Shown piece by piece: positions 24,940 to 64,000 of a DNA stretch of 64,000 bases. The notes beneath the pieces were generated by a model. It did not search any database. It saw only the letters and a list, made by a program, of their open reading frames with translations, and was not told the DNA's origin. The stretch lies in the NCBI GenBank assembly GCA_951828585.1, contig OX639991.1, forward strand, positions 1,148,576 to 1,212,575, read 5' to 3'. The position numbers and the translations under genes are program-made. The DNA is from Longimicrobiales bacterium (lineage in GTDB: Bacteria; Gemmatimonadota; Gemmatimonadetes; Longimicrobiales; Gaopeijiaceae). Position 1 is the first letter of the stretch. Each line of letters opens with the position of its first letter.

Positions 24940-26130
24940 TTGAGGGGATCCAGATGGTTCCCGGCGCCACTTGCCATCGGCCTAACGAGTCTGATGGCCG
25001 GGTGCGGAGGTGATGACGCAAGCCCGCGGGTGAGCGCGGAGGTGGACACCATCGCGGGAGTGGTGATGGTACGGAACGGGACCGGCTCATGGCGTGAATC
25101 CGAGCAATGGCGGGTGGTCGAGGACTTCAGGGTCGGGAGCCTTCGGGTGAGAAACCCGGAGAAGGAACTCAGCCACTCACGCAACACCACCGTGATCCTC
25201 GGGCCCAACGGTCAGATCTTCGTCCTGGAATACTCGACCGACCGCGTTGTGGTGTTCGATCGCGATGGTGAGTTCGTGAGGAGTTTCGGCGGCGCCGGCG
25301 AAGGTCCCGGCGAGTTTCGTAGCCCGATGGCTATGATGTGGGATGGCAAGGATCGTCTGTGGGTGGCGGACGGGCTCAGGGGGCGGTATCACGCCTTCGA
25401 CTCGACAGGTGCGATCCAGAAGACCTTGCACCGACCGGTTTATGCCACCAGGCGTATCCAGCATCCCCTCGTGCGGGGTCCCGCCGGGACTGTTGTGGAT
25501 GAGGCCGCTGGCGACAATATGGTCCTGTTCCTGGCGGTGGATACATTGGGGCACCTCACCGATACGCTGGCGAAGCTCCCCACGCTGGAGCTGTCGCGGG
25601 GCTTTCGGAACGTCATTAACCGGCCGAGTTGGAAGTCGATGCAATTCGTCAGCTTGAACTATATCCCGCGTTCTCGCTGGAGCCTGACACCCGACGGCAC
25701 GGTCTGGTCGGCGGTGACCGGTCAACTCCGCCTGGTCCAGACCTCAGCGGACGGTGACACCGTACGCATCGTCGAGACCTCTCACCGGGCCGCCGAGTTC
25801 GATCAACGGGATCTGAAGATGATTGCCGAGGGGCTGGCGGAGGCCGGGATCGCCAGGAGGGACGTCGAACTGGTTCGGCCTGTGGTCAGTGGGATCTATC
25901 TGATGGACGACGGCCACATCCTGGTCGGGATCATCGAACAGGTGGGAGAAGATCCCCGCACCTTTGATGTGTTCGATCCGGAGGGGCTCTTTCTGGGAAG
26001 CATCGATCTGGGCTTCAGGCTTCCCTACCGCAACATCCCCGCCATCGTCGGCGATACGATCATCGCGGTCACTCCCGGCGCCTTCGATGTGCCCTACCTC
26101 GTGCGCGCCACGATAAGACGTCCTCAATAG
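24940..26130 (+). CDS. Six-bladed beta-propeller lipoprotein
   Basis: 396-residue lipoprotein, close paralogue of the product at 15857-17308. They share VDTIAGVVMVRNGTG, ESEQWRVVEDFRVG, LGPNGQIFVL, RSFGGAGEGPGEFRSPM, AEGLAEAGIARRDVELVRPV and MDDGHILVGIIEQVGEDP with few changes. The TTG start at 24940 is the only codon that includes the full signal peptide and lipobox (LTSLMAGCGG); AAGG lies about 11 bases upstream. It ends shortly after AVTPGAFDVPYLVRATIRR and lacks the C-terminal extension of its paralogue. Function unknown. Confidence 0.85.
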   Translation: MRGSRWFPAPLAIGLTSLMAGCGGDDASPRVSAEVDTIAGVVMVRNGTGSWRESEQWRVVEDFRVGSLRVRNPEKELSHSRNTTVILGPNGQIFVLEYSTDRVVVFDRDGEFVRSFGGAGEGPGEFRSPMAMMWDGKDRLWVADGLRGRYHAFDSTGAIQKTLHRPVYATRRIQHPLVRGPAGTVVDEAAGDNMVLFLAVDTLGHLTDTLAKLPTLELSRGFRNVINRPSWKSMQFVSLNYIPRSRWSLTPDGTVWSAVTGQLRLVQTSADGDTVRIVETSHRAAEFDQRDLKMIAEGLAEAGIARRDVELVRPVVSGIYLMDDGHILVGIIEQVGEDPRTFDVFDPEGLFLGSIDLGFRLPYRNIPAIVGDTIIAVTPGAFDVPYLVRATIRRPQ

Positions 26131-50178: not shown

Positions 50179-50217
50179 TGAGTCCGCGCGAGCCACGCCG
50201 CCGGGCGCTGCCGTGTG

Positions 50218-50362
50218 GGCGGATCGCTTACGGTCTGAATCCCGGCAGGAAATCGTCTAAAGTCAACTCGGACTGCACGATCTGCGTTTCCGGCCGTTGT
50301 ACTGGACCCTGCTGGACCGTACCGCGAAAGCGGGAAAAACGGGTTTGAATAGCGGGAGTCCC
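50218..50362 (+). repeat. 145-bp dispersed repeat, copy 1
   Basis: Closely matches 57962-58107. Shared blocks include GGCAGGAAATC, CTAAAGTCAAC, GGACTGCACGATCTGCG, CTGGACCCTGCTGGACCGT, AAAGCGGGAAAA and GCGGGAGT. Identity looks about 80-85%. Both copies lie on the plus strand, 170-230 bases before a defence-like gene. In one frame both encode a Cys-rich peptide (DCTIC...TGPCWTV) ending at the same TGA, but similarity continues past that stop, so a purely coding origin is unlikely. Confidence 0.8.
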
Positions 50363-50530
50363 AAGCCCCCGCCGCCTTTACTCCAACGGGCCCGGAAGCC
50401 CGCCCGTGGGCCTTGCCGAACTACTCACGCGCGCTTGCGCGGAAGGCTGTGGAGGAAGGAAACTGGGACCGGCACGATCAACGCTTGCCTGCCGCGACGA
50501 CGATCTCTTCCGCCGACTGGAGGCCGCATC

Positions 50531-52084
50531 ATAAGCGGACATGACTGGGACGGAGCAAAGATCCAGATCCTCGCCTCCAGCAATTCACAGGGGGTACACA
50601 AGCACCTTCGGATCTTGGAGTCCAACCGCGAGCGAGTCCTTCCGGGCTGGATCTGGGAGCTCCTCCAGAACGCCCGCGATGTCTCGGATGGAAACGCGAG
50701 CCTGATCGCCTCGGTAGAGTGGCGCGGCGACGAGCTGACCTTCCGCCACAACGGACGCGGATTTGAACCTGATGAGATCACGCACCTCATCTACTACGGC
50801 TCGACGAAACTCGAACTCGCCGACCCGATCGGCCAGTTCGGCACGGGATTCCTAGCCACGCACCTGCTGTCTCGTACCATCGATGTGTCCGGGCACCTGA
50901 CGGACGGCCAAACGTTCGCCTTCAGGCTTGACCGGAGCGGCGAGTCGGTGGACGAATTGAAGCATCGCATGGACGCCTCATTCGAGGCGTTCAAGTCCTC
51001 GTTGGCACCAGCCCGCGATGCCGGTGATCCAGGAGTGGCGACCAAGTTTCGGTATCCAATCGACAAGCGCGCTTCGAGAGCCGTGGACCAGGGCGAGCGT
51101 GCCTTGGAGCTTGCCGGACCCTACGTGACCGCTTTCAACCATCAGTTCAAGCGCATCGAGTTCTTGACACAGGAATCCGGAATCGTTCTTGAGCTGAGGA
51201 AACGGCGCGATCTCGCCGAAGTTGGGATCGGCGGCCGCGTCGATCGCCTCGTCCCCATTAGGGAAGTGGAGGTCGAAGTCTCAGCGCGTGCCAGCGCGCC
51301 GCTAACGCGTCGTAGCCATGTCGTGGCGGAACTCGATGGGGTCGCCGTGGCAATCCCCTTCGAGCGCCGGGGCCAGGAGATGGTCCTGGTGGCGCCGACG
51401 TGTGTACCCAAGCTGTTGTTGGGGTTCCCCCTGATCGGAACTGAGGACTTCAGCTTTCCTGTAGTCGTTCACAGCCTCCGGTTCTCACCGACCGAGGAAC
51501 GGGACGGCGTCTACCTCGGACAGAACGACGATCAAGTCAACCAAGAGAATCAGGCGGTCATCGAGCAAGCCTGCGGACTTCTGCTCTCAATCGCTGGGTT
51601 CGCGGCTGAATCGGGCTGGTCGCGCATCCATGTGCTCGCCGAAGTACCGCGTGTCCGTGAAAAGCCGTGGCTGAACAAGGCTTGGCTGCGCGGTCGCCTC
51701 GCGTCGAATCTGGTCGATCAGATCCGCGCAACGCCGTTGGTTCTGAACGAATTGTACCGGCTCTGCGGGGACATCCACTTCCGGATCGGCCAACGCTACC
51801 TGGCCGTCGAGTCCCTGGGCCGGGCCCGTCCCTCGGCAACACCGGCGAAGCCTCAGCCCCCGAAGCCAAGGGCGGAGTCGAAGCCGCCAAGGCCCGCACC
51901 GGACCATCCATGGCGAAAGCACTTCCAGACGAGCGCCCGGATGGCCATGGCACGGCGGAACCGGCGCCTCGCGGAAGAGGCTGCGCGAAGCAATGGACGC
52001 CTTGCGGAGCCGCCGGACGCCGTACCTGCGGGCGTCGCTGAAGGCCGGGAAACTCGCCGGAAACCGGATACGGTACAGGAATGA
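50531..52084 (+). CDS. GHKL (Hsp90-like) ATPase-domain protein, start codon missing, probably truncated
   Basis: About 517 residues. The GHKL fold is shown by WELLQNARDVSDGNASLI (N box), TFRHNGRGFEPDEI (G1) and DPIGQFGTGFLATHLLS (G2), as in sacsin/Hsp90-like ATPases often found in defence loci. GGAGG at 50519-50523 points to codon 50531, which is ATA; no ATG, GTG or TTG is found nearby in frame, so the start is abnormal or mutated. Similarity to an ordinary fold seems to end near IRATPLVLNE. The remaining 110 residues are Pro/Arg-rich, and a better-looking frame (REAMDALRSRRTPYLRASLK) appears near 51980. It may be a decaying gene. Confidence 0.65.
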   Translation: MSGHDWDGAKIQILASSNSQGVHKHLRILESNRERVLPGWIWELLQNARDVSDGNASLIASVEWRGDELTFRHNGRGFEPDEITHLIYYGSTKLELADPIGQFGTGFLATHLLSRTIDVSGHLTDGQTFAFRLDRSGESVDELKHRMDASFEAFKSSLAPARDAGDPGVATKFRYPIDKRASRAVDQGERALELAGPYVTAFNHQFKRIEFLTQESGIVLELRKRRDLAEVGIGGRVDRLVPIREVEVEVSARASAPLTRRSHVVAELDGVAVAIPFERRGQEMVLVAPTCVPKLLLGFPLIGTEDFSFPVVVHSLRFSPTEERDGVYLGQNDDQVNQENQAVIEQACGLLLSIAGFAAESGWSRIHVLAEVPRVREKPWLNKAWLRGRLASNLVDQIRATPLVLNELYRLCGDIHFRIGQRYLAVESLGRARPSATPAKPQPPKPRAESKPPRPAPDHPWRKHFQTSARMAMARRNRRLAEEAARSNGRLAEPPDAVPAGVAEGRETRRKPDTVQE

Positions 52085-52492
52085 TCACCGCCTTGTGGTC
52101 CCACCAACCCAACGCGACCGTCGGCGACCCCCCGATCTCCGGGCCGGGCAAGCCCGTCCCTCCGATCGGGGGGTCCACTACCCACCCCACCCCCCTCCCC
52201 GCTCCGGCTGGCCGGGGGTGGCAAACACTCACCCAGGGGGGGACATTTCTATTTCGCTCTACCCCCGGACATTTTCTATTCCGGTTGACACAGTGCTCAG
52301 CTCAGTCAGAGTTTCGCATCCACGCAGTAACGGTTACCTTAAACTCACTGCTTCCGGTGGTCACCGGCGTGAGAGGTTGGTAGCCTTGATTCGATCCTCG
52401 ATCTGTGGGGTCGCCGGGACGGTGTGGCTGGAGCTGCACTTGGCGGGCGGATGACGGCCTGCGACCAGACATTCGGCGAAGGAGATCATGAC
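52085..52492. other. Non-coding region between accessory genes
   Basis: About 400 bases without a convincing gene. It contains a GC-rich C-tract segment (52120-52235), the repeated GGACATTT elements described separately, and a promoter-like TTGACA at 52285-52290 upstream of the lipoprotein gene at 52493. Confidence 0.5.
52235..52290. mobile_element. Possible insertion-sequence end remnant
   Basis: Two near-copies, GGACATTTCTATTTCG (52241-52256) and GGACATTTTCTATTCCGG (52267-52284), followed by TTGACA. Read on the other strand it begins TGTCAACCGG and repeats AAATGTCC, resembling the multi-repeat termini of IS21-like elements. No transposase gene is present. Identification is by resemblance only. 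Confidence 0.3.
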
Positions 52493-53146
52493 ATGAGAAT
52501 TGGTACGATGTTTTCGAGCCGCGGCCACGGTGGCGCCGGGATGGCGCTTGTCGGATTGGCGGTGCTCGCGGCCGCCTGTGCCTCGCGCGGCGGCGCCCCC
52601 ACTCCTCTGACCGGGGCGGAAGCCGAAGCGTTCTTTGCGGGCCTCAATGGCGTGTGGGAACTGGACGAATCCAGTTTTAAGGGCCCGCCCAAGTTTCAAG
52701 TCCAGAATGACCACGCGGAAGTCCTCCATCTTGAGCACATGGACCTGGAACAAGCCCGCCAGTTTGCGGAGCGCAGGGGCGAGGAGACGCTTCAGAGGGT
52801 GACGGCGGAATTGAAACCCATCCTGGAGGTGTGGCTGCAGGTTCCGAACACGCTCACCCTGTGGGTGGACGAGGAGAGACTGATTTACGTGCCGACGCCC
52901 GGACGGAGCATGGAGATGCCGATGAGTGGCGAGTGGATCATCTGGCAAGACCCGGAAGGGCAATCCGTCCGCGCGCGGGTGTCCTGGGATGGCGACAGGC
53001 TTGCTCTCGAACGCCGGGTGGGTTCGCACGGGCAGGTGCGATCGGTTCTGGAACTGGTGGATGACCGGCTGCGGATTAGCCGCACTCTACGGGTCCCGCG
53101 CATGTCTACGTCGGCACCCCGGTTTGTCCTGATGTACGACCGGTAG
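52493..53146 (+). CDS. Hypothetical lipoprotein
   Basis: 217-residue protein starting at ATG 52493 (GGAG about ten bases upstream) with a signal and lipobox (ALVGLAVLAAACASRGG). The mature part has GAEAEAFFAGLNGVWELDES, ELKPILEVWLQVPNTLTLWV and RARVSWDGDRLALERRVGSH, suggesting a small beta-barrel or lipocalin-like fold (the FxGxW near the start of the mature part). Family not identified. It converges on the propeller gene at 53279. Confidence 0.72.
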   Translation: MRIGTMFSSRGHGGAGMALVGLAVLAAACASRGGAPTPLTGAEAEAFFAGLNGVWELDESSFKGPPKFQVQNDHAEVLHLEHMDLEQARQFAERRGEETLQRVTAELKPILEVWLQVPNTLTLWVDEERLIYVPTPGRSMEMPMSGEWIIWQDPEGQSVRARVSWDGDRLALERRVGSHGQVRSVLELVDDRLRISRTLRVPRMSTSAPRFVLMYDR

Positions 53147-53278
53147 ACCGGTACGAAGGGGGGAAGTAGGGGAGGCGAGTGTCTCGGGTGCCCTCCCGCT
53201 CGCCTCCACGACTGTCGAGCTCGCCTTCCGCTTTGCAGATGGTCAACGGCAATTGACACCCGGAGGCGGGGTGGCGGG

Positions 53279-54340
53279 TTACAGGAATGGCGCCGCCTCG
53301 GTCGCCTGCGCCTCCGGCGGTGCTCCCCCGCACGGCTCGCCGCTCACGATTCGGAGCGGGTGCATCGAGACTTTGTTCGCACTTCCCATGAATAACTGCG
53401 TACCGTTCTCTCCTTGGTCCTGCTGAAAAACGAGGACGCTGTCGCCCCTCACTCGCACGGGGATCCGAGTCATGTCGTTCCGCCCGCCTTTCCGCAGGAT
53501 CGCGTAGCATCCGGTCTCGGGGTTGATGATCGTGCCCCCGGTACGCCAATCGTTGCTGAGCAGCACGAGGTTGCCCCGGTCATCGAATGACGGATGCAGG
53601 TTGCGCGACCACGGTGGGCATGGTTTCCCGCCCATCTTACATCCCCAGTCCTCGGTGAACTCGGTCGGAACGGATATCCGCTCCACCTCGCCGCTCAAGT
53701 GGTACAAGAATACGGAGTCCGGGCCTTCCTCATGGGTTAGCACGACGAAGGCCCGGTTCTCCCTACAGATGATCCTTGCGAAGATCATCACGTTCCCGCG
53801 GGCGACGACCTCCTCCACCGAACCGACAACGCCGATTGATTCACCGGCGACCGCATCCGGTCCTATCGCCTCCAACTCGTACCGGAGTACCCCGTTGGGA
53901 ATCGGCACGGCAGGTTTGCCCCCAAGGTCGCAGACCGCTTGACGCATGGGTGCTCGCGGGGTCCACGACCCAACCGGGTTGGCGTCCGGGTCGTATGTGA
54001 CGACTCGATGGACTCCGGAAATGTACAGACCGCCATCCTTGGCGGGCGCCATGTATGCCTTGCCCTGTGAGAATTCGAACGGTCCGTCACCGCGAGGCGT
54101 CGAGATCGTCCGCACCCACTCGCCGGTCTCGAGCGAGAAGACCATGATCCCATTCGGCTCCTCGGCATCGTGGACGTAGAGCAGGCTACGGTCCCAGTCG
54201 GCGACCAGGTTTCCGGGCCTGATGGCTCGCCACTCGTCGTCGATGATCGTCCGTCCGGTCGAGTAGTCGACTTCGAGAATCTGCTGGGCGCTGCCAATGG
54301 CGGGGGTCGCCAGAATGGCAAGGAGGAGGGCTCGAGTCAT
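53279..54340 (-). CDS. Exported beta-propeller-like protein
   Basis: 353 residues with a signal peptide (LLLAILATPAIGSAQQ) and propeller features (GNLVADWDRSLLYVHDAEEP, GIMVFSLETGEWVRTISTPR, DGGLYISGVHRVVTYDPDAN, HPSFDDRGNLVLLSNDWRTG). Four or more cysteines (AVCDLGG, RIICREN, WGCKMGGKPCPP, TGCYAIL) distinguish it from the other propellers and imply disulfides. It starts three bases after the stop of a small exported protein gene, forming a two-gene unit. Function unknown. Confidence 0.78.
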   Translation of the reverse strand: MTRALLLAILATPAIGSAQQILEVDYSTGRTIIDDEWRAIRPGNLVADWDRSLLYVHDAEEPNGIMVFSLETGEWVRTISTPRGDGPFEFSQGKAYMAPAKDGGLYISGVHRVVTYDPDANPVGSWTPRAPMRQAVCDLGGKPAVPIPNGVLRYELEAIGPDAVAGESIGVVGSVEEVVARGNVMIFARIICRENRAFVVLTHEEGPDSVFLYHLSGEVERISVPTEFTEDWGCKMGGKPCPPWSRNLHPSFDDRGNLVLLSNDWRTGGTIINPETGCYAILRKGGRNDMTRIPVRVRGDSVLVFQQDQGENGTQLFMGSANKVSMHPLRIVSGEPCGGAPPEAQATEAAPFL

Positions 54341-54343
54341 GGT

Positions 54344-54697
54344 CTATTGGGCAATTCCAACAGAGACATTGTTGACATCGTATACACGCGTGCCACAGGA
54401 ACCATAATAACAGAGGACCCAACCCACCTCAAGCGATATTGTAATGTGGCCAATTACGACGGTGGTCGTACCAGTCGCAGTTAGTTCCAGCACAAGCGGG
54501 CAAGTGGCGGTATCCACGACCTCGTTAGCCCCATCAATCGGGACGACGATGTCGATAGTCAAGGACGGCGGGCAATAGCCCCTCTCCGCGCACTCCGTGG
54601 TCGGCACGACATCGGGTGCCGGTACGGCCGAGGTGGTGGGGGGGACCGCGACCACGAGCGCAAGCGCGACGAGAGTGAGTGCGAAGCATCGCTTCAT
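54344..54697 (-). CDS. Small exported cysteine-containing protein
   Basis: 117-residue protein with AAGGAGAT seven bases before ATG 54697 and a signal peptide (CFALTLVALALVVAVPPTTS). The mature part of about 90 residues has five cysteines (TTECAERGYCPPSLTID, ATCPLVLELTATG, LCYYGSCGTRVYDVNNVSVG) and reads as a small beta-sandwich. It is co-transcribed with the propeller protein gene three bases downstream. The arrangement recalls small exported peptides paired with propeller lipoproteins in Bacteroidota, but no family match is claimed. Confidence 0.7.
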   Translation of the reverse strand: MKRCFALTLVALALVVAVPPTTSAVPAPDVVPTTECAERGYCPPSLTIDIVVPIDGANEVVDTATCPLVLELTATGTTTVVIGHITISLEVGWVLCYYGSCGTRVYDVNNVSVGIAQ

Positions 54698-54943
54698 CGG
54701 TCTATCTCCTTCTCTGCTAAGGGTATTCCTCGCCCCACTGGGCGAAGGTTGACCAACGTAATGGACCAATCCGAATCCCGCAACTCTCTCTCCCTGAGTT
54801 CAGCCCTGCCGGTAGCCATCAACGGCTCGGAACATAATCGCGGTCCGGCCCGCGCCCGCGCTGGCTCAGCGCAGCTATCATCATCACAAGGTCGCGGCGA
54901 GCGTGCCGAACGACTCGGCTAAGCGTGCAACTTGCTCGTCCTA

Positions 54944-55141
54944 GGCCGCTTGCGGGCTAAGCATCGTGAAAAGGTTGAGGATGCATCTCAAGCGGCGATG
55001 CCAAGGGTGTTGAAGAGGCTTCGCATTTCGTGGTGGACAGCGGGCCGCTTGCGGGCTAAGCATCGTGAAAAGGTTGAGGATGCATCTCAAGCGGCGATGC
55101 CAAGGGTGTTGAAGAGGCTTCGCATTTCGTGGTGGACAGCG
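54944..55141. repeat. 99-bp exact tandem duplication
   Basis: Bases 54944-55042 are repeated without a difference at 55043-55141. The second copy holds the 3' end of the 55087-56745 gene; the first is an extra copy just beyond its stop. Perfect identity implies a recent duplication, or an assembly artefact. Confidence 0.93.
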
Positions 55142-56745
55142 GCGTAGCGTTGGTCCAGGGCGCTGCTGATGCGGGGTGCGGGCGCGCGGCAGGCCGTGGA
55201 TGCCGCGGCGAGGAGTGGGCAGACGACCTTGTCGCGGAGCAGGAGCAGAGCGGCCATCGCGCGTAGAGCTGAGGAGTCCACACAGTATCGGCGTGAACGT
55301 GGGATCTTGGCGGCCAACCCCTTGCAGCGGAACTTCCTGAGGTCGTAGGCGGCGCGGCCCGGCGAGTAGGATTCATCGTTGAGGAGCCGGGCGACCTTGG
55401 TGGCGAGCTCCGAGGACGTGAACCCCGCCGGGTTCGGCGAGAGTGCCAGGAGGGCCTGCATCACGGCACGGGCCCGAGGACGGTTGATGTCGATGCCACC
55501 GACGCGGACGGCGCCGAGGCGGCCGGGCCGGGGGAGCCGGTCTAGCAGGCTTGGATCGATGAAGGCCGTGTCCAGGCAGTCGAGCACCTCGATGAAGCGG
55601 TCGACCATTTGCCGAAGCACTTCAACGGCCTCGGGGAAGTACGACGCCCCGAGCCGACAACCCAGGTCGCGCGCATTGTGCGCCATGGCCTCGATGCGGA
55701 GGACGCGCTCGCCTTTCGTGTAGATCTTCAGCGTCAGGCGCCTGAAGCGGATGCGCAGGATCGTCAGATCGTACTCAGGTGTCTCGAGCGAGACCTCCAC
55801 GACCGGAGCTCGCGGCTGCCCCTTGTGTCGCCTCGGACGCTGCCGGCGACCGAAGAGGGTCTTCACGGTACGCAAGTCCAGCGGGCCCCGGACCCGGTCG
55901 ATGAGGGCGCCGAAGACCCGGTCCATCCGCTGGCCGCTCGTGAAGAGCAGGTTGCGGCTGTACTCGGCCTGGAAGAGCGAGTAGTGGTAGCGGAACCCTG
56001 TCCGCTCCTGGTCGGCGACGTCCAGCGCGAAGCACAGCACCGCCGAGTAGATCCAACGCTCCGGAGCCTGGACCAGGCGCCCTACAGAACTCTCGGGAGA
56101 GCTCAAGGTCTCTGCGACAAGGCCCAGGTCCCGGGCGTTGGATAGTTCCGTGAAGCAGTTGTCCTGCTTCCTGAAGGCAAGTCCCCGGCGCTCCGCTTCC
56201 TTCGCCACCCACTCATGGCCGTTGAGGATCACCAGCGCGTTGAACGGCGGGTGCGGGCAGAAGCGGATGATCATGTGGCCCCAGTCGCGGTCCATGATGT
56301 GGAAGGCGTAGTGGTTCACCCACGGCCTCGGCACCTTTCGCTTGATCCGCCGGATCCGCCCGTCGGCCGTGTGTTCGACGTCCCAGACACTGCCCGGCGC
56401 CCGGCGCACGATGACTACGAACACGCCCTCATAGCTGGGGTCGTCGGGCAGGTAGCCCCTGGCCAGGTCCTCGTTCCGTTCTCCACTCTTGCTGTACACG
56501 ACCGGTACGCCGGCACCCTTCGCCCAGCCCTTCACCCTGCGGGCAAAGCGCCCCGCCACCCGCATGAGCCGCGTGTTGTTCAGCCCCTCGTCCGATCCCT
56601 GCCAGCGCCGCCACCACATCCGCAACCCGGCCGCTCGCTGGCCGAGCTGGAAGTACGCGCGCAGTACCACGCGATCCACGCAGTCGTAACTGCCGTCCAG
56701 AAATCCTTCGAAGAGGAGGCCGCCGGCATCGCTCGTCCCGTCCAT
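55087..56745 (-). CDS. Uncharacterised mobile-element-associated protein with C-terminal winged helix
   Basis: 552-residue protein of unknown function. The N-terminal half is rich in aromatic and His residues (WVNHYAFHIMDRDWGHMIIR, HPPFNALVILNGHEWVAKEA, ERWIYSAVLCFALDVADQER, YSRNLLFTSGQRMDRVFGAL). The C-terminus (about residues 440-530) looks like a winged helix (ALLALSPNPAGFTSSELATK, GRAAYDLRKFRCKGLAAKIP, LRAMAALLLLRDKV). DNA binding, and possibly a nuclease or recombinase role, is inferred. It lies ten bases after an MbeD-like gene and next to relaxase fragments. A GTG at 56772 is an alternative start. Its 3' end lies in a tandem duplication. Confidence 0.7.
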   Translation of the reverse strand: MDGTSDAGGLLFEGFLDGSYDCVDRVVLRAYFQLGQRAAGLRMWWRRWQGSDEGLNNTRLMRVAGRFARRVKGWAKGAGVPVVYSKSGERNEDLARGYLPDDPSYEGVFVVIVRRAPGSVWDVEHTADGRIRRIKRKVPRPWVNHYAFHIMDRDWGHMIIRFCPHPPFNALVILNGHEWVAKEAERRGLAFRKQDNCFTELSNARDLGLVAETLSSPESSVGRLVQAPERWIYSAVLCFALDVADQERTGFRYHYSLFQAEYSRNLLFTSGQRMDRVFGALIDRVRGPLDLRTVKTLFGRRQRPRRHKGQPRAPVVEVSLETPEYDLTILRIRFRRLTLKIYTKGERVLRIEAMAHNARDLGCRLGASYFPEAVEVLRQMVDRFIEVLDCLDTAFIDPSLLDRLPRPGRLGAVRVGGIDINRPRARAVMQALLALSPNPAGFTSSELATKVARLLNDESYSPGRAAYDLRKFRCKGLAAKIPRSRRYCVDSSALRAMAALLLLRDKVVCPLLAAASTACRAPAPRISSALDQRYAAVHHEMRSLFNTLGIAA

Positions 56746-56781
56746 CGCACTCTGCCTTTCGTCTGATCTCACCCACCTCCG

Positions 56782-57054
56782 TCAATCTATGGCCCCGCTG
56801 CGCCGAAGGCGCCCCGTTTCCTGGGCGAAGTCCCAGGAAACGCGTAGCACTAGCCACTCGATTCGCCTCTGCAAGGCTGCGTTCTCCCCGCTCTGCCGCT
56901 CGACGTGCTGCCTCAAGCCTCCGTTCTCCTCGCTTTGCCGCTCGACGCGCTGCCGCAAGGCTTCGACCTGCCCGGAGTGCCGCCGCTGTTCCGTCTCGTA
57001 CTGCGCGGAGAGCCTCTTCAAGGCCTCCGTCAACTGCCTTTCCAACTCGCTCAT
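56782..57054 (-). CDS. MbeD/MobD-like coiled-coil mobilization accessory protein
   Basis: 90-residue protein, mostly coiled coil (ELERQLTEALKRLSAQYETE, then HVERQSGENAALQRRIEWL with an internal heptad-containing repeat RQ-VERQS-EN). The opening ELERQLTEALKRLSAQY is typical of MbeD-like proteins encoded inside plasmid mobilization modules. It starts nine bases after the broken MbeB-like gene and ends about 36 bases before the 552-residue protein start. Small mob proteins of this type assist the relaxase. Confidence 0.75.
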   Translation of the reverse strand: MSELERQLTEALKRLSAQYETEQRRHSGQVEALRQRVERQSEENGGLRQHVERQSGENAALQRRIEWLVLRVSWDFAQETGRLRRSGAID

Positions 57055-57063
57055 ACAGTTCCC

Positions 57064-57569
57064 TCACTCTCTCGACAGCTTCAACGCCGGAAGGTGCCCG
57101 TCCACCCACCAGGGCGGATCGGCCAACACCCCGTCCGGCACCACGACGAACCGCTCGCCCTTGATCACGTGGAACACGAGCCCCCAGGTTGTCCTCCTCC
57201 AGCTGGGCCAGAGTCCGCCTGGCGTCCGCGATGTCCCGGTTCAGTTCGGCGCGGGTCTCGATCCGGTTCTGGATGCTCCTCCACAACCACTGCATCGTCG
57301 CCCAGCTTCCGCCGAAGAAACCGAGCCAAAGGCTCAGCCCGACCACCAGCGGCCGTTGCCAAGCCTTTGCCAGCAACTCGCGCATCTTCCCGGTCGCCTC
57401 CTCCGCATCGCGCTCGATTGTTCCGAGCGCATTCCTCGCGACGCGCCGCGAGTTCTCGCCGAGCCGCTTCAGCTCGCTCGCGGTTCAACTCCTCGACCTC
57501 CCTCCGCTCGCTCTCCAGCCTCCTCTGCAGCCGCTCGGTCAAATCGTTGGCGGTCGAAATTCTCTCCAC
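57064..57569 (-). pseudogene. MbeB-like relaxase accessory protein, two frameshifts
   Basis: Three reading frames join into one protein of about 170 residues. The first is ERISTANDLTERLQRRLESE (from about 57569). After an apparent extra base near 57486 comes ASELKRLGENSRRVARNALG, then the membrane helix QRPLVVGLSLWLGFFGGSWA. After a second shift near 57187 comes WGLVFHVIKGERFVVVPDG to the stop at 57064. The domain order (coiled coil, TM, short periplasmic or cytoplasmic tail) matches proteins encoded beside MOB-type relaxases. The start overlaps the relaxase fragment, as mbeB is nested in mbeA in ColE1-like plasmids. Confidence 0.65.
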
Positions 57570-57896
57570 ACAGTCCTCCTTTCAGCCGCCACCGGTCCCC
57601 GGTCTCGGGGTCCAGCGGGGTGAGGTAGTCCTTGCCCTGGCGCGGCACCTGAGACCCGCCTCCTGCAGTGCGGAGACGACATCGGCACGATTCCGCACCG
57701 TGTCGTGCTCGACGCGCTGGAGCAGGTAGTCCCGGATCAGATCGCGGGGTGAGGCTTCCAGCCGGAGCCCGGCCCGCAGCCGCGCCGCCTCGATGACCGC
57801 ACGGTGACCGGGTTGCTCCACCCTGGCCCGCGCCGGATCGTCCGGGCGGCCCAAGCCGTGCTCGTGGTTGAAGGCATCGCTTACCGGGTCGAACAT
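57469..57896 (-). pseudogene. MobA/VirD2-type relaxase C-terminal fragment, frameshifted
   Basis: From ATG 57896 the frame reads NHEHGLGRPDDPARARVEQP, GHRAVIEAARLRAGLRLEAS and DLIRDYLLQRVEHD, a stretch typical of the C-terminal half of MOB-family relaxases. A missing base near 57652 breaks it; the next frame continues VPRQGKDYLTPLDPETGDRW and RLKGGLCGENFDRQRFD to a stop at 57469. The catalytic N-terminal half (Tyr and HUH motif) is absent. Upstream in the same frame is a stop, then the dispersed repeat. It is a relic and cannot be an active relaxase. Confidence 0.65.
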
Positions 57897-57961
57897 CCTC
57901 CGTCAACCCGGAGGCGCGATGTTGAAGCTCCGGCCGGTCTCTAGGTCGCAGCGTGCCGCGA

Positions 57962-58107
57962 GGGCGGATCACCCCAGGCTCGAATCACGGCAGGAAATCT
58001 CCTAAAGTCAACCAGGACTGCACGATCTGCGCTTCCTGCGGTTTGACTGGACCCTGCTGGACCGTGCAGCTAAAGCGGGAAAACCAGACTTGAATGGCGG
58101 GAGTTCC
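57962..58107 (+). repeat. 145-bp dispersed repeat, copy 2
   Basis: Second copy of the repeat at 50218-50362, same orientation. It begins at GGGCGGATC and fades after GGCGGGAGTTCC. It abuts the truncated mobilization module on its left and precedes the HEPN-like gene at 58333 on its right. Confidence 0.8.
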
Positions 58108-58332
58108 GCCACTGCGGGATTCCCTTGGCGAGCGTCTCCAACGACGTCGTGCCCGTGGCCGCCGACAGTCGGGGACCGGCCCGCCGGGATGAGGCTCGCT
58201 TGCCTTTGGACCAGACTCCGCGGAAATGTTCGGCTATTCGGACGACATGTTATCTTCCTTGGTTCTGGCAGCAGCTGTAGTCGAGGGGCGTTGGGCTGGA
58301 ATCCCGGTAGCCGCGTGGAGTTGATCGAAACG

Positions 58333-58953
58333 ATGACCGTTGAGGACGTTCCTCGGAAGTTGGGGGTTGCGGATCGCGCGTTCAGGGCGTCTTGGGCAGC
58401 CGAGTATGCCGGCTACCTTGCTCAAGCCTCTGAGAGTCTGCGGGATACCGCCACACAGGCGGAACAGCAATGCTATGAGTCTCTGAAGAGCCGAGGAGTT
58501 CGGCGCTTGGACTCGTCGGCCGAACTGGAGCCCGAGGAGCGTCGGCTTTTTACCAGCGCGCGGTCAACGAGTCACGCTGGCGCGTTGCTCTCACTGTTCG
58601 CCATCGAAGTCGCGCTCAAGGCCTATCAGATCCGCGACAGGGGCCAACAAAGCAAGAATGACCACGATCTCGCGAGGCTGTTTGAATCTCTCAATGAAGA
58701 GACCAGGGCACGTCTCAAGGAACTCTGTCCGGAGGTGATGGAAACCGTCACGAAACACCGCAAGGGGTTTGTTTCTCTCCGATACCAATTCGAGGAGTTG
58801 GGCGAATCGAAAGGCGTCAAGATTCCCAAGGCGACTGATCCCCTTCATGGGGTGGCGCCGCAGATCGTGGAGGCCCTGCTCGAAGAGCCCGCAATTCAGG
58901 AGGTCGTGGCAGCTGTCCGGACTGGGAGGGAAACGCGTGGCGTGGGCGAATGA
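58333..58953 (+). CDS. HEPN-like domain protein
   Basis: 206-residue cytoplasmic, all-helical protein. The segment HAGALLSLFAIEVALKAYQI, followed by KNDHDLARLFESLNEETRAR and HRKGFVSLRYQFEE, follows the pattern of HEPN proteins, whose C-terminal helix often carries an R..H or GHDL-type motif. HEPN domains are frequent RNases in defence and toxin systems. ATG 58333 is chosen; GTG 58317 is an alternative and neither has a strong ribosome site. It stands alone, 226 bases after a dispersed repeat copy. Confidence 0.6.
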   Translation: MTVEDVPRKLGVADRAFRASWAAEYAGYLAQASESLRDTATQAEQQCYESLKSRGVRRLDSSAELEPEERRLFTSARSTSHAGALLSLFAIEVALKAYQIRDRGQQSKNDHDLARLFESLNEETRARLKELCPEVMETVTKHRKGFVSLRYQFEELGESKGVKIPKATDPLHGVAPQIVEALLEEPAIQEVVAAVRTGRETRGVGE

Positions 58954-59618
58954 CACCCCGAGGGTGGGTGGGCGCTCGGGTGGCGTCGAAAACGCTTCCA
59001 CAACCGCATGGAGTGCTGGCGGGCGGCGTGGGACCGTTTCGATTCCGGCTTGACCAACGACACGAGCTGGGCCGCATGGAAGCGAGGTGCGAAATGATGC
59101 CCATGACGGTTCGGGTGGCCGCCGCGGCGGTGCCAACGTGGTCAGTAGTACCCGCGACGCCTTTCGCGACCTGCCCTTCTGACCCGTGAACTTTCCGACT
59201 CTCTGCATGTGACGGCGCACGATGGCCACCTGCGCGAGTCGCCATATCGGCGACCACGTGGCTTCTGAGCTTCGCTACCTACTGGCGCTGGCGTGCGCGC
59301 TGGATCCTGCCCGGGTGGGAATCGGCGTGGATCGGCTGGGCGATGACCGCACTGGAGGGGCCTGGGCCGGTTGAGTTAGACGCCGAGACCTGATCCGATC
59401 CCGCGACCGGGCACAGGCCGTTTCGGGGCGGCTCGGAGGCGCCAGTTGGCCGACGACCGGACAGCAAGCACCTCGGGCGAACCGGGGACCGCGACGACAG
59501 TCGTTGTTTTACCTTATTGGGACCGTTGATCCGGGCCGGTCACTCCGACCGTCGTCGGCCTCGTGGCGACTGCCGTGCCCGTGCTCGCGATTGTGGCCAC
59601 AACCACAGGAGCGCCGAG
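58954..59618. other. Intergenic region, no gene recognised
   Basis: About 665 bases between the HEPN-like and zinc-ribbon genes. Short frames exist on both strands but show no ribosome site, domain or biased composition. No repeat or hairpin with a T-tract was seen. Confidence 0.5.
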
Positions 59619-59900
59619 ATGTTCAGACTGCTGAAGGATACCGAAGACGGAAACACCGATGTGATGTGCGAGTGCGGTCGGTTGTATCAGGTGGACGACC
59701 ATCCCGATGAGGCGAAGTGCCCATGGTGCGGGGTCGTGTCGTCACTGATCGACGGTGCATCCAAGCCGGTGGATGACAACTGGTGGACCGAACCTGTCGT
59801 CGTGGGCAGGAGGATCGACAAGTGGTCGCAACCGATGAGGCGACCGAAGAGGCGCAGAGTGATCCACTATGGCCTCGACGATCCGCGTGGAATGGGCTAG
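59619..59900 (+). CDS. Small zinc-ribbon protein
   Basis: 93-residue protein. Residues about 16-45 hold two cysteine pairs (MCECGRLYQ and AKCPWCGVV), consistent with a structural zinc ribbon. The rest is Trp/Arg-rich (DDNWWTEPVVVGRRIDKWSQ) with a basic tail. The ATG at 59619 has a weak AGGAGCG site. No family recognised. The cysteine spacing supports a real gene; a nucleic-acid-binding role is a guess. Confidence 0.5.
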   Translation: MFRLLKDTEDGNTDVMCECGRLYQVDDHPDEAKCPWCGVVSSLIDGASKPVDDNWWTEPVVVGRRIDKWSQPMRRPKRRRVIHYGLDDPRGMG

Positions 59901-59962
59901 AGAGGTCAGAGTGGAATCCGGGCAGTCTCAACCGGCAACCCTTGCCGCCGTGGGTGCTTTGA

Positions 59963-60658
59963 ATGGCTGAATCGCGCTCAACGCATCGGATTGAACTCCG
60001 CATACCCGCGGAGATCATTGAAGCGACCGCGGACGCGATCCGGGACAGCGATCGAAGCCGTTTGGACCGACTGATAGCCGAATACGCAGCCCAGCGAAGG
60101 GTGAGCGAGGAGGAAAGAGAGCGCGTCGTGGAGCGGTGCCGGAAGGAATGGAGGCGGCGCGAAGCCCAGTTTAGGGAAGAGTTGGACCGGCGATGGCGAC
60201 CGTGGGCAACCTACATTCGGATCGACAGCGAAGGCGTGTGGGCATCCGGCAGCGTCGTGGTGTGTACCGGCTGTGGGCTCACGACTGCCGCCAGCACCGC
60301 ACGGAAGGCCCTTCACGACGTGCGCGACTGCCCCGGGTGCGGCGGGGATGGCACCGACGAAGAGCGCGGCGAGCGCGTTCACCTGACGCGGGCGCAGAAG
60401 CGGTGGGAGTGTGGAGACTGTTCGGCTGCGATTAAGCAGAAGACCCTCTACGTCGTCTTGGGCCTGCGTGGCAGTCCCGTTCCAAAGGTGATCGGGAAGT
60501 GGCCGGGTGTGCGGCGGCTGTGTATCGAGTGCTGGCAACGAATTGAGGGTGCCCGGGCAGCCGAAAGGACTGCACTACGTCCGGCACGGCGGACGAAGTT
60601 GCGGGTGCGGCAGGGAGTGAGGCCAACCCCCAACCGGACGATCTCCCGCCCCCGATGA
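59963..60658 (+). CDS. Hypothetical zinc-binding protein with N-terminal coiled coil
   Basis: 231 residues. The N-terminal 85 residues are a charged helix (SEEERERVVERCRKEWRRRE). Two zinc-binding pairs follow (VVCTGCGLT with DCPGCGG, and WECGDCSAA with LCIECWQ), then a basic tail. The architecture suggests a nucleic-acid-binding or regulatory protein. No family recognised. It lies 62 bases after the smaller zinc-ribbon gene on the same strand and they may form an operon. Confidence 0.6.
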   Translation: MAESRSTHRIELRIPAEIIEATADAIRDSDRSRLDRLIAEYAAQRRVSEEERERVVERCRKEWRRREAQFREELDRRWRPWATYIRIDSEGVWASGSVVVCTGCGLTTAASTARKALHDVRDCPGCGGDGTDEERGERVHLTRAQKRWECGDCSAAIKQKTLYVVLGLRGSPVPKVIGKWPGVRRLCIECWQRIEGARAAERTALRPARRTKLRVRQGVRPTPNRTISRPR

Positions 60659-61112
60659 GTGGCTTTTCGGCCCGACCCCATCCACCGACCGCGTCTCCGC
60701 TGTGAAGCGTCCGGCCAATACGAGCGACCAACCTCGCGGGCGACCTTACCCACCGCATCGTCGCCCCCGCCCTTGGACGGCGCTGTCGTTCGTCTCCGGC
60801 ACGGCTTGGCGGGCGTCCGCAAGGCTGGCGTGAGCCACGCTAAGGTGGTCAAGCCAGCATATCTCCCGTGGCCACACTCCGTGCGTCCCCGAGCGAGGCT
60901 GGCGGGGGGCGGTGCCCCATCTGACCCCTGTACCTTTCTTGAACGCTTTGCATGGATCGAAAGCGCGTTCAAGCGCGACGGGCGGTGGCGTCACCCCGCT
61001 TCCCCCTTGACGGGGCATGCCGACGGCTAGCCTATTCGGGGAAGCCATCGGCGTCCAACGACATTACCGCGTCCGGTGGAGCACGGGATCAAACTGAGGG
61101 CGGGTCTATACC
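60659..61112. other. Intergenic region, no gene recognised
   Basis: About 450 bases without a supported gene. Minus-strand frames of about 100 codons are open here but show no start signal or domain. The promoter of the three-gene operon that follows is expected near its right end. Confidence 0.45.
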
Positions 61113-61343
61113 GTGAGCGACCGCGGAATCATCGGGCAAGCCTACGGGCGGAGGATACACGCCCGCAAAGTCGTCGCCGTCGACGATGCCGGGGACGGGC
61201 TGTGTTGGGTTCGCCTGACCCGGTTCGGCAACGACTGGCTCCTGATTCGCTCCGATGCCCGCGACGTGTCGCGGACGGTGCGGAAGCTCCGCCAGATACC
61301 GCCGGGCGAGCAGTCGGATCGGTTCCCGGAAGTCGGGCAGTGA
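61113..61343 (+). CDS. Hypothetical small protein, first gene of GIY-YIG operon
   Basis: 76-residue soluble protein from GTG 61113, containing YGRRIHARKVVAVDDAGDGL and CWVRLTRFGNDWLLIRSDAR, which reads as a small beta-strand domain. Its stop overlaps the next gene (GTGA). No family recognised. Its membership in a tightly coupled three-gene unit is the main evidence for it. Confidence 0.5.
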   Translation: MSDRGIIGQAYGRRIHARKVVAVDDAGDGLCWVRLTRFGNDWLLIRSDARDVSRTVRKLRQIPPGEQSDRFPEVGQ

Positions 61344-61519
61344 GCCTGTTCCTCTACCTTGCCCTTGGGGCGCTGGGCGTCGCCGTCATCTTCGGACTGT
61401 CCACCGACGTGGGGGCCGCCGCCCGCCGCCTCCTACGCCCCATCGCCTCGGCCGACGAGGCTTCGCGAACGAAGATCGGGAGAGAGCAGGTAGGGCGCGG
61501 GGTGACGAGGGCAAAATGA
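61340..61519 (+). CDS. Small single-pass membrane protein
   Basis: 59-residue protein from GTG 61340, overlapping the upstream stop (GTGA) and the downstream ATG (ATGA). One N-terminal membrane segment (LFLYLALGALGVAVIFGLST) is followed by a basic, soluble tail (RRLLRPIASADEASRTKIG). The double overlap argues for co-translation with the GIY-YIG protein. Function unknown; a membrane anchor for the partner proteins is possible. Confidence 0.55.
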   Translation: MSLFLYLALGALGVAVIFGLSTDVGAAARRLLRPIASADEASRTKIGREQVGRGVTRAK

Positions 61520-62379
61520 CGGGCGGGAAACCCTTCAAGATTAAGATTCTCGTGGCCGACGGGCGTCCGGACGGGCTGCGCCTAGTCGAGAAGTCAAACT
61601 GGATCGGTCAGGGCATCGTGTGTCCACGAGGCAGGTACTCGTGGGCCAAGAAAGCGCGAGAGGAGTTTTCTCGCAGTGGTGTCTACCTCCTGGTAGGACA
61701 GGATGGCGACCCTCTGCCTAAGCTGTATGTGGGCGAGGCGGAAGAGGTGAAGACCCGTCTCGACCGGCACTACGAGGACAAGGATTTCTGGCAGCAGGCC
61801 ATCGTCTTTACCACGAAGGGAACGCCCCTGAACAAGGCGGAGGTCAAGTACCTCGAAGCCGGCCTTCTGAAATTGGCGAGGAGGTATGGGCGGTCGAAGC
61901 TTCAGAACACCAACAAACCCCGCCTACCCGGGCTGTCCGAAGCGGACCAGGCCGAGATGGAGGGTTACTTGGACGAACTCCTGTCCCTCCTCCCCGTCTT
62001 GGGTGTACCGTTCTTCGAACGCGAAGAAGCGCCATCCAAAGACCGCGAAGTCTACCATGTGGACCGATCGGGCTGCAAAGCGGCGGGCTTCGAAACGAAC
62101 ATGGGATTCACGGTCCGAGAAGGGTCACTCGCCCGGGAATCGACCGTGCCTTCCATGAAGGAGAAAGCGTCTGGGTACTACCTCCAGCGACAAGAACTCA
62201 TCAAAGAAGGGGTGTTGGAGAAGAAGACCAACCATTATCGCTTCACAAGGGACTGGCCCTTCAGTTCGCCGTCCGCCGCCGCGGCCGTCTGTCTCGGTAG
62301 CAACGCCAACGGTCTCATTGAATGGAAGGACGAGTCCGGTACCACTCTGAAGGCCAACCGAAAGAAGGCGACTGCTTAG
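61516..62379 (+). CDS. GIY-YIG nuclease-like protein with C-terminal DUF4357
   Basis: 287-residue protein. Residues about 45-130 form a GIY-YIG-like domain: SGVYLLVGQDGDPLPKLYVG (GVY...LYVG core), then EAEEVKTRLDRHYEDKDFWQ with the conserved Arg. The C-terminus (about 215-280) matches DUF4357: DWPFSSPSAAAAVCLGSNA then NGLIEWKDESGTTL. Proteins of this architecture occur in restriction and defence neighbourhoods. The ATG overlaps the upstream small gene (ATGA). Nuclease activity is inferred from the domain, not shown. It is the most complete functional gene of the accessory region. Confidence 0.85.
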   Translation: MTGGKPFKIKILVADGRPDGLRLVEKSNWIGQGIVCPRGRYSWAKKAREEFSRSGVYLLVGQDGDPLPKLYVGEAEEVKTRLDRHYEDKDFWQQAIVFTTKGTPLNKAEVKYLEAGLLKLARRYGRSKLQNTNKPRLPGLSEADQAEMEGYLDELLSLLPVLGVPFFEREEAPSKDREVYHVDRSGCKAAGFETNMGFTVREGSLARESTVPSMKEKASGYYLQRQELIKEGVLEKKTNHYRFTRDWPFSSPSAAAAVCLGSNANGLIEWKDESGTTLKANRKKATA

Positions 62380-62911
62380 ACACAATGGCCGGAAGCCAGC
62401 CCGGCGGACGGCCTCGAAACGGCCGCCGAAAAAGCACGCTCCTCGGATGCGAGGTCCGGGGACGGCGGAGCCGGCCGCTTCCGGTTCATCGAGGAACAAG
62501 GGGCCGACCTGGCAGCATCCGGGCAGTGGCCCGCGCTCCCAAGTGTCGTCGGGTTCGCCGGTCGCATACCCGCACATAGCAGGTCCCATGCGATGACGCC
62601 GATCTCCCCGGCGACCCGCTCATAGCCGTCGTACTCCGGGGGATGCCCCCCCCGGCCCGAGGTTCTTGTAAAACAAAAACACATCTGACTCCTCCGAAAC
62701 CCCGCAAACGCGGGGCCGCTTCGAGAAACCGCGTCAGCGGCTGTCCCGCACGCGTGATCGCGCCTCGGCGCGAAGGCGGTTCGTGCGTGTACGCACCTCC
62801 CCCGGAAAGGTAACGCATCCGTCGGGGGCCACGACTGGCGGAGATGCCCCGATGCCACCACTTTTCCTTCGCGCAGATCGTGCGGTCCATCATCCAGAGA
62901 GGAATGGAACG
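62380..62911. other. Intergenic region upstream of integrase remnant
   Basis: About 530 bases with no supported gene. A short GC hairpin (CCCCGC-AAAC-GCGGGG) lies near 62700, and on the minus strand it is followed at some distance by T-rich sequence near 62670, a possible terminator. No tRNA gene or obvious attachment-site repeat was found next to the integrase. Confidence 0.45.
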
Positions 62912-63847
62912 ATGGCACGCACGAAACGAAGTCGGCGCTCCTACGGCGTCGGCGAATGGGGCCGGAACCGGGTCAGGATCTTTCCCGACCCGAAGACCGG
63001 CATCTTCCAGATCGAGTGGCGAGAGAACGCGCGCAGGCTCACCCGGTCCCTCAACACCGCGACTGGGCGCGGGCGAAGAGGCAGGCGGATCAGTTCGCCG
63101 CAGGGTTCATCGACACGCCCAACGGCAAGGCGGAAGCCGAGCCCGAGCCGCTCACCCTGGAAAGGCTTTTTGACATTTACGCCGAAGAGGTGACGCCCAC
63201 CAAGGGCGAGTACACCCGGCAGCACGACCGAACTGCGATGGCGATGTTCCTCCGGTTCTTCGGACGGAACCGCGATCCGGCGACGCTTTCGCAGCGGGAC
63301 TGGGACCGGTTCATCGGGGCTCGGCGGGCGGGAAGAGTCGGCCCGAGCGGAAAACCGGTGTCCGACCGGACGGTCGAATACGACCTGAAGTTCCTGATGG
63401 CGGTCCTGAACTGGGCCGAAAGGTCGAGGGACGAGCGGGGCCACCTGCTTCTCGACAGGAACCCGCTCAAGGGTCTCAGGAAGCCTACGGAGAAGTACCC
63501 CGTCCGGGTCGTCCTCACCGAGGAGGAGTACCGGGCGCTGCTTGGGGTCTCGCGGCAGGTCGATTGGCGGTTCCACGTCGCGCTCGTGCTCGCGCACGAG
63601 ACCGGTCACCGGATCGGCGCAATCCGCCAGCTTCAGTGGTTCGATACCGACTTCGAGGGAAAGACCATCCGGTGGAGGGCCAAGCACGAGAAGCAAGTTT
63701 GCCAGCGACCTGATGGACCTGCCGCTCAAGGTGCTCTGCGAGCTTGGCGGCTGGAAGGATGCCCACACGGTGCTCAGGTGCTACCAGAGGCCGGATGCTG
63801 GACAACTCAGGACGGCACTGGAAGGCCGCCCGAGGGTTCGCGGCTGA
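62912..63847 (+). pseudogene. Tyrosine recombinase/phage-type integrase, frameshifted and internally deleted
   Basis: The N-terminus (WGRNRVRIFPDPKTGIFQIE) starts at ATG 62912 with AGGA upstream. A missing base near 63057 breaks the frame, and the next frame carries the core-binding domain (TLERLFDIYAEEVTPTKGEY, RTVEYDLKFLMAVLNWAERS) and the first catalytic Arg region (AHETGHRIGAIRQLQWFD). At about 63693 the sequence jumps from RWRAKHEK to KFASDLMDLPLKVLCELGGW, then RCYQRP to the stop. Roughly 80 codons, including the HxxR box, are missing, and the frame changes again. It cannot be active. It probably once integrated this accessory region. Confidence 0.75.
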
Positions 63848-64000
63848 AATCCCGACCAGCGGGAATCATTCGGCGGGAATCCGGCCCTCGAAATCCCTAA
63901 GTTCATCGGATTCAACCAGTTACAAATCCCATGCAACTTGTCGCGAGGGCGCCAGGCCACTGCCCCGGTCCCGCGCCAGGCCTAACCCCCCGCCACCGCC

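What the first reader, a model, noticed from the sequence alone, without database searches (positions are those of the whole stretch)
50218..58107. Two 145-bp repeats each leading into a defence-like gene
Copies at 50218-50362 and 57962-58107 are alike over the whole length and in the same orientation, upstream of a GHKL ATPase and a HEPN-like gene. They could be insertion borders, recombination sites or a shared regulatory leader for accessory cargo. This is the least explained repeated structure in the window.
Basis: seen in the sequence. Interest (0 to 1): 0.6.

Follow-up and report, generated by a model that had tools for sequence, protein, structure and literature searches.

The report
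Left ends of cargo-carrying integrase elements
The two 145-bp repeats are the left ends of two members of a multi-copy family of mobile DNA elements, each moved by its own integrase enzyme and carrying changing cargo that sometimes includes anti-phage genes, in sponge-associated Gemmatimonadota bacteria.

Summary
The repeats are real (81% identical over 154 bp) and are not a stand-alone regulatory motif. Each is the left end (LE) of a member of a tyrosine-integrase element family. Anatomy: LE of about 145-200 bp, then cargo (total 4-21 kb), a 16-bp motif, a 386-aa integrase gene, and a right end of about 110 bp. Of 23 LE/RE pairs, 21 carry direct repeats of 7-14 bp exactly at the two termini. 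In the window the 57962 copy is the LE of a 6.0-kb element (57957-63951, direct repeat CGCGAGGGCG) with a decayed integrase. The 50218 copy is the LE of a second element that has lost its right end. A 20.9-kb sister in the same genome splits an HTH-ImmA/IrrE gene; five relatives keep that gene intact, and the split halves overlap by exactly the 11-bp repeat. All 23 genomes of the genus hold copies (5-68 motif sites each). Integrase nearest neighbours usually lie in other genomes, which suggests horizontal spread. Cargo is mixed: some is defence (type IIG R-M, PD-Lambda-5, TmtA-like GHKL, PDC-S14), most is unassigned. I judge it a new family of a known kind. Activity is untested.

The parts
50218..50362 (+). 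LE1: left end of element E1 (first repeat of the finding)
   Evidence: Homology to LE family, LE start 50218 by profile; left limit of an island absent in G083
50243..50252 (+). LE1 inverted-repeat arm (partner 50287-50296)
   Evidence: Covarying arms CGGCAGGAAA / TTTCCTGCCG in 54 LEs
50270..50285 (+). 16-bp motif GGACTGCACGATCTGC in LE1
   Evidence: shared with LE2 and, inverted, with the integrase leader
50297..52084 (+). E1 cargo ORF: GHKL (sacsin-like) ATPase, matches the N-terminal part of PADLOC TmtA; true start probably downstream of the TTG
56851..57949 (-). Truncated MobP-type relaxase / coiled-coil mobilisation locus in which E2 sits; probably part of E1
   Evidence: tblastn with the relaxase of L085, broken in frame
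57957..57966 (+). Left copy of the 10-bp direct repeat CGCGAGGGCG flanking E2
57962..58107 (+). LE2: left end of element E2 (second repeat of the finding)
57988..57997 (+). LE2 inverted-repeat arm (partner 58032-58041)
58015..58030 (+). 16-bp motif in LE2
58075..58105 (+). Two arm-like repeats GCGGGAAAA (58075-58083) and GCGGGAGTT (58097-58105) in LE2
   Evidence: One to three copies of GCGGGA[AG]TC (up to 2 mismatches) in 94 of 97 LEs and two or more in 113 of 121 REs
58090..58953 (+). E2 cargo: HEPN-like ORF (weak match)
   Evidence: Pfam HEPN E 0.006, below cut-off
59963..60658 (+). E2 cargo ORF of unknown function
   Evidence: No PADLOC or NCBIfam match; only sub-threshold Pfam matches
61255..62379 (+). 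E2 cargo: GIY-YIG/DUF4357 protein, PADLOC defence candidate PDC-S14
   Evidence: Pfam DUF4357 1e-21; PDC-S14 2e-94
62873..62888 (-). Site B: the 16-bp motif (1 mismatch), inverted relative to LE, just upstream of the integrase start
62912..63844 (+). Decayed tyrosine integrase gene of E2 (frameshifts, internal deletion)
   Evidence: tblastn pieces aa 1-47, 49-262, 297-386
63859..63941 (+). RE: right end of E2 with arm-like repeats GCGGGAATC at 63859 and 63873
   Evidence: Alignment of right ends
63942..63951 (+). Right copy of the direct repeat CGCGAGGGCG

Best explanation
Each repeat is the left attachment end of an integrative mobile element moved by a lambda-type tyrosine integrase. The element ends are an LE (inner border GCGGATC, a covarying inverted repeat, the 16-bp motif, two GCGGGA-type arm repeats) and an RE just behind the integrase gene (two GCGGGA-type arm repeats, a small inverted-repeat core). 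The integrase probably binds the arm repeats and joins the element's ends to loosely matching 7-14 bp target sites, leaving that sequence as a direct repeat on both sides. Shown here: the termini, the direct repeats, an empty site, an integrase family with conserved catalytic motifs, nesting of elements in one another, exchangeable cargo. Inferred: strand exchange by this integrase, a circular intermediate, and a role of the 16-bp motif in LE and in the integrase leader as a binding site that couples recombination to integrase expression. In the window, E2 (57957-63951) entered the mobilisation relaxase gene of a degraded E1 (LE at 50218).
For: (1) Direct repeats: of 23 non-nested LE/RE pairs, 21 share 7-14 bp at the two termini and 19 share 9 bp or more; swapped pairs reach 9 or more in about 5%, mainly where the same target recurs. 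Window E2 has CGCGAGGGCG. (2) Empty site: the element at G000:1498798-1519680 splits an HTH-ImmA/IrrE gene. The joined flanks give a 381-aa frame, and five relatives hold the gene unbroken over 459-461 bp at 76-90% identity. Own-genome matches are 1-300 and 290-461, overlapping by the 11-bp repeat. (3) The window island between 50164 and 63991 is absent in G083, where the flanking genes are about 23 bp apart. (4) LE and RE borders are found inside integrase genes of sister elements. (5) Integrase: Pfam Phage_integrase 4.9e-21; invariant R235, H332-x-x-R335, W356, Y366 in 11 intact copies. (6) The 16-bp motif occurs only in LEs and at integrase starts in the host genome. (7) Arm-like repeats at both ends. 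(8) The same PD-Lambda-5/R-M/helicase genes lie in two elements with different targets in two species.
Against: No circular junction was seen. Only one degenerate RE-LE join was found (L087), and it may be a scar. Two of 23 pairs show no convincing direct repeat. The window's E2 right flank is the host gene region and not the other half of the relaxase, so its right junction is not a simple insertion product. E1 has no right end. Most complete elements carry no relaxase (19 of 21), so how they move between cells is unknown.
Confidence: 0.93

Rival explanations
1. Integron-like system: the 145-bp repeat is an attC-like folded recombination site, the motif in front of the integrase is attI, and the cargo stretches are cassettes.
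For: The integrase gene diverges from the cargo and has a motif-bearing site directly at its 5' end. The LE inverted repeat covaries. Two LEs precede one integrase in the window.
Against: Recombination borders lie at LE and RE termini, not at the 16-bp motif. A conserved right end follows the integrase gene. The whole LE-to-RE unit, integrase included, is absent at the empty site. LE and B motifs are inverted to each other.
Confidence: 0.03
2. The repeat is mainly a regulatory leader (promoter, riboswitch or sRNA-type) for accessory genes, carried along by insertions.
For: It lies upstream of cargo genes, and its inverted arms covary, as RNA or dimer-binding sites would.
Against: No Rfam match anywhere in the window. 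Its left edge is the insertion border. The gene next to LE is often on the other strand. Relatedness of sequences can inflate covariation scores.
Confidence: 0.03
3. Ends of a DDE transposon or IS-derived MITE, with the integrase only a frequent passenger.
For: Multi-copy, many targets, flanking repeats of about 10 bp.
Against: The integrase sits at a fixed place next to a conserved RE in every complete element. Repeat length varies (7-14 bp) as with imperfect attachment-site matches. The ends are not terminal inverted repeats. LE and RE share arm-like repeats typical of integrase attachment sites. Transposases occur only as occasional cargo.
Confidence: 0.02

Closest known systems
Lambda/Tn916-type integrative elements (general tyrosine-integrase attachment-site architecture)
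   Same: Phage_integrase domain protein, arm-like repeats at both ends, short flanking direct repeats, relaxed target choice as in Tn916 (the last from my own knowledge)
   Different: Tens of copies per genome, no conserved conjugation or phage genes, a 16-bp motif shared by the left end and the integrase leader
GInt genomic islands (PMC5385486)
   Same: Integrase-moved islands with varied cargo (2.5-70 kb), imperfect flanking direct repeats
   Different: GInts need the ginABCD operon with three integrases; here one 386-aa integrase stands at the end opposite LE
Strand-biased circularizing integrative elements, SE (PMC10214605)
   Same: Integrase elements without conjugation genes, similar size (SE median 15.7 kb), cargo
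   Different: SEs have intA-tfp-intB-srap, 1-2 copies per replicon, Gammaproteobacteria only
Integrative and mobilizable elements, IMEs (PMC5704250)
   Same: Integrase; a MobP relaxase in 2 of 21 complete elements; frequent nesting in mobilisation genes
   Different: Most complete elements carry no relaxase
RAGE of Orientia (PMC10732058)
   Same: A highly amplified integrase-bearing element within one genome
   Different: RAGE is a conjugative element; these have no conjugation module and keep nearest relatives in other genomes
XerA/XerC/XerD-type recombinases (4a8e, 5hxy)
   Same: Distant catalytic-domain similarity
   Different: Far below NCBIfam cut-offs; longer N-terminal part; element-borne

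Membership tests
Tyrosine-integrase integrative element | Integrase with the conserved catalytic residues | tested here: met
   PF00589 75.7 bits; R235, H332, R335, W356, Y366 invariant in 11 intact copies; the window copy itself is decayed
Tyrosine-integrase integrative element | Short direct repeat at both borders | tested here: met
   21 of 23 pairs, 7-14 bp
Tyrosine-integrase integrative element | Empty target site in relatives | tested here: met
   HTH-ImmA/IrrE gene intact in 5 relatives, split with 11-bp overlap in the host; window island absent in G083
Tyrosine-integrase integrative element | Circular intermediate / recombinase activity | not testable with these tools
   Needs PCR, reads or an assay
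GInt | ginABCD operon with three integrases | tested here: not met
   One integrase gene, at the end opposite LE; paper PMC5385486
SE | intA-tfp-intB-srap at the left end, gammaproteobacterial host | tested here: not met
   Integrase alone at the right end; Gemmatimonadota hosts
Integron | Cassettes bounded by attC, recombination at attI/attC | tested here: not met
   Borders are at LE/RE termini and include the integrase
IME | Own relaxase or oriT for mobilisation | tested here: inconclusive
   Relaxase inside 2 of 21 elements; oriT not searched
Temperate phage or satellite | Phage genes or presence in viral contigs | tested here: not met
   No integrase relative in IMG/VR by this search; the most frequent Pfam matches of 80 cargo proteins include no phage structural family
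Defence island | Clustered defence genes | tested here: inconclusive
   Defence hits in the window elements, L165, L091 and the 20.9-kb element; none in most cargo scanned individually

The most novel reading that the evidence does not exclude
The LE/integrase-leader pair of inverted 16-bp motifs plus the covarying LE hairpin mark an unusual control or recombination mode, for example single-strand folding of LE or DNA looping that silences the integrase until the element circularises. That control could let tens of related elements coexist and trade anti-phage cargo in one genome.
Probability: 0.15. Interest if true: 0.75.

Novelty: new member of a known kind. Interest (0 to 1): 0.5.

Why it matters
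It turns an unexplained repeat into a precise tool. The LE and RE profiles mark the borders of a numerous element family in uncultured sponge symbionts, so their accessory and defence genes can be cut out exactly and new defence candidates (PDC-S14, TmtA-like GHKL, many unknown proteins) listed by position. One integrase family with tens of related copies and varied targets in a single genome is also a good natural data set for how integrases tolerate loose target sites.

Tried and rejected
Known RNA: no Rfam hit in the window. tRNA as target in the window: none; one LE elsewhere (L057) abuts a tRNA-like sequence seen by eye only. Gene fragment: the 561-aa protein at 55087-56772 was suspected to define the repeats, but it has a single copy in the genome. 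Integron reading: strong at first because of the integrase-adjacent motif; dropped after the direct repeats and empty site. Cross-phylum spread: MAGs titled Gammaproteobacteria with 9-38 integrases carry a Gemmatimonadota host gene at 68-69% identity, like the BD2-11 MAG, and MAGs titled Acidobacteria, Binatia and Terriglobia hold only 1-2 copies; L162 and L164 show the same ORF layout under two phylum labels. So this is mislabelling or misbinning and not evidence of spread. 'Defence carriers' as a general rule: rejected, most cargo proteins have no PADLOC hit. The right end of E1 was searched for in the window and not found. Viral contigs: none. The first PADLOC call on the 20.9-kb element failed on an off-by-one and was redone.

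Full report
OBSERVATION. The two copies are a direct repeat of 154 bp at 81% identity (50209-50362, 57954-58107), with similarity that drops sharply at both sides. One copy used as query finds the other at E = 1e-34, and about eight further copies in the 4.47-Mb host genome. Within the family, copies concentrate in the host's own genus (8 of 8 sampled) and in genus g12 (8 of 8). The 16-bp core GGACTGCACGATCTGC occurs 16 times in the host with at most one mismatch (control 1). It is in all 23 genomes of the genus, 5 to 68 times each, with zero control hits outside the host.

TWO KINDS OF CORE SITE. Half of the host's core sites lie in the 145-bp repeats. The other half lie, in inverted orientation, directly upstream of a gene starting MARTKRSRRSYGAGEWGRNRVR..., in the window at 62873, although at some sites that gene is truncated or decayed. 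That gene is a 386-aa tyrosine integrase: Phage_integrase 4.9e-21, catalytic motifs invariant in 11 intact copies, only distant XerA/C/D similarity. The window copy is decayed.

ANATOMY. Aligning the repeats and the DNA after the integrase stop codons gives a left end LE and a right end RE. LE runs inward as (R)GCGGATC, inverted-repeat arm CGGCAGGAAA, 16-bp motif, arm TTTCCTGCCG, then two GCGGGA-type repeats. RE has two GCGGGA-type repeats, a TAAGTTCAAC-like stretch also found in LE, a small inverted repeat, and a terminus near CTTGTC. Profiles of LE and RE paired 23 non-nested elements. Of these, 21 have a direct repeat of 7-14 bp exactly at the termini, 19 of them 9 bp or longer. Exchanged LE and RE flanks reach 9 bp or more in about 5% of cases, largely because some targets recur. 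Window element E2 is 57957-63951 with CGCGAGGGCG on both sides. One to three GCGGGA[AG]TC-like repeats stand in 94 of 97 LEs, and two or more in 113 of 121 REs. The LE inverted repeat covaries: one pair is G-C in 37 and A-T in 11 of 54 sequences, and cells changed on both sides number 20 against 8 in shuffles. A dimer-binding site or a hairpin would both give this, and relatedness inflates it.

EMPTY SITES. The host element at 1498798-1519680 (20.9 kb) interrupts a gene whose joined flanks read as a 381-aa HTH-ImmA/IrrE protein. Five relatives contain the joined sequence unbroken over 459-461 bp at 76-90% identity. The host matches it in two pieces, 1-300 and 290-461, about 20.9 kb apart and overlapping by the 11-bp repeat. 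The joined flanks of L091 give an IstB-like protein (name from my reading). LE or RE borders also fall inside integrase genes of sister elements. In the window, the gene ending near 50164 and the gene at 63991 are about 23 bp apart in relative G083, so the whole island from LE1 to RE2 is absent there.

WINDOW ELEMENTS. E2 sits in a broken mobilisation relaxase gene (56851-57949, minus). Six of 21 elements lie in or beside such a locus. E1 (LE at 50218) is followed by the GHKL ATPase and probably included that relaxase. E1 has no right end of its own. The right flank of E2 is the host gene region and not the rest of the relaxase, so a later deletion or rearrangement must be assumed; this is not resolved.

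CARGO. Element length is 4-21 kb. Hits to PADLOC are: GHKL as the N-terminal part of TmtA and a GIY-YIG/DUF4357 protein as PDC-S14 in the window, a type IIG R-M enzyme in L165, and a PD-Lambda-5 / PLD-SNF2 helicase / type IIG R-M set in both L091 and the 20.9-kb element, which have different targets in two species. Most other cargo proteins scanned one by one have none. Pfam shows relaxases, 6-bladed propellers, T5orf172, Mrr, Shedu and single signalling and transport proteins. Defence is therefore part of the cargo and not the rule; no matched background was computed.

DISTRIBUTION. A genome-collection scan gave 452 integrase loci; the top 80 are sponge-associated Gemmatimonadota MAGs, including Candidatus Palauibacter and BD2-11, apart from some records with other phylum labels. 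Genomes reached this way hold up to 38 integrase matches. Records titled Gammaproteobacteria carry a Gemmatimonadota host gene at 68-69% identity, so their labels are doubted and no cross-phylum transfer is claimed. For 63 of 80 integrases in genomes with three or more sampled copies, the nearest relative is in another genome (median 92% identity, versus 80.6% for the best in the same genome). This points to exchange between lineages more than local amplification, although shared inheritance contributes. The sample is the top of a ranked list.

MECHANISM. Shown: termini, direct repeats, empty sites, an integrase family with conserved catalytic residues at a fixed place, nesting. Inferred: this integrase makes the exchange between the ends and a loosely matching target; the arm-like repeats are its arm sites; the 16-bp motif in LE and in the integrase leader is a shared binding site that may link integrase expression to recombination. 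Intercell transfer is unexplained, since only 2 of 21 complete elements carry a relaxase.

COMPARISON. It works like a lambda- or Tn916-type integrative element. It is not a GInt (three integrases; PMC5385486) and not an SE (intA-tfp-intB-srap, Gammaproteobacteria, 1-2 copies; PMC10214605). The five literature searches found no description of this family, and the Palauibacterales paper has no integrase or transposon text. Subscription papers and preprints were not searched.

Noticed in passing
window:55087-56772 (-): 561-aa protein without any Pfam or NCBIfam match, single copy in the genome; a perfect 99-bp tandem duplication (54944-55141) overlaps its 3' end.
   Followed up: partly
window:16064-16712 and 25135-25780, also 47178 and 49219: A paralogous family of 6-bladed beta-propeller (DUF5128) genes; similar propellers also occur as cargo in L034 and L083.
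   Followed up: no
L087:7572-7586 (G000 about 1979.58 kb): A degenerate right end directly joined to a left end in the same orientation, like a circle junction or tandem scar, with no integrase found beside it.
   Followed up: no
L155:3035-3041: Two left ends face away from each other and share one target site, so two elements meet head to head.
   Followed up: no
L097, L109, L110, L113 (left flanks): Four elements from different genomes are inserted at the same point of a mobC-like gene next to a MobP relaxase, an apparent hot spot in mobilisation genes.
   Followed up: partly
L162 and L164: Apparently the same contig layout in MAGs labelled Gammaproteobacteria and Acidobacteria, a sign of misbinning or mislabelling in these sponge data sets.
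   Followed up: partly
L034, L036, L083, L098, L138, L155 (targets): Several elements sit in a dispersed palindromic target (TGCCAGCCCGGC / GCCGGGCTGGCA) that is itself part of a short repeated sequence of the host.
   Followed up: no
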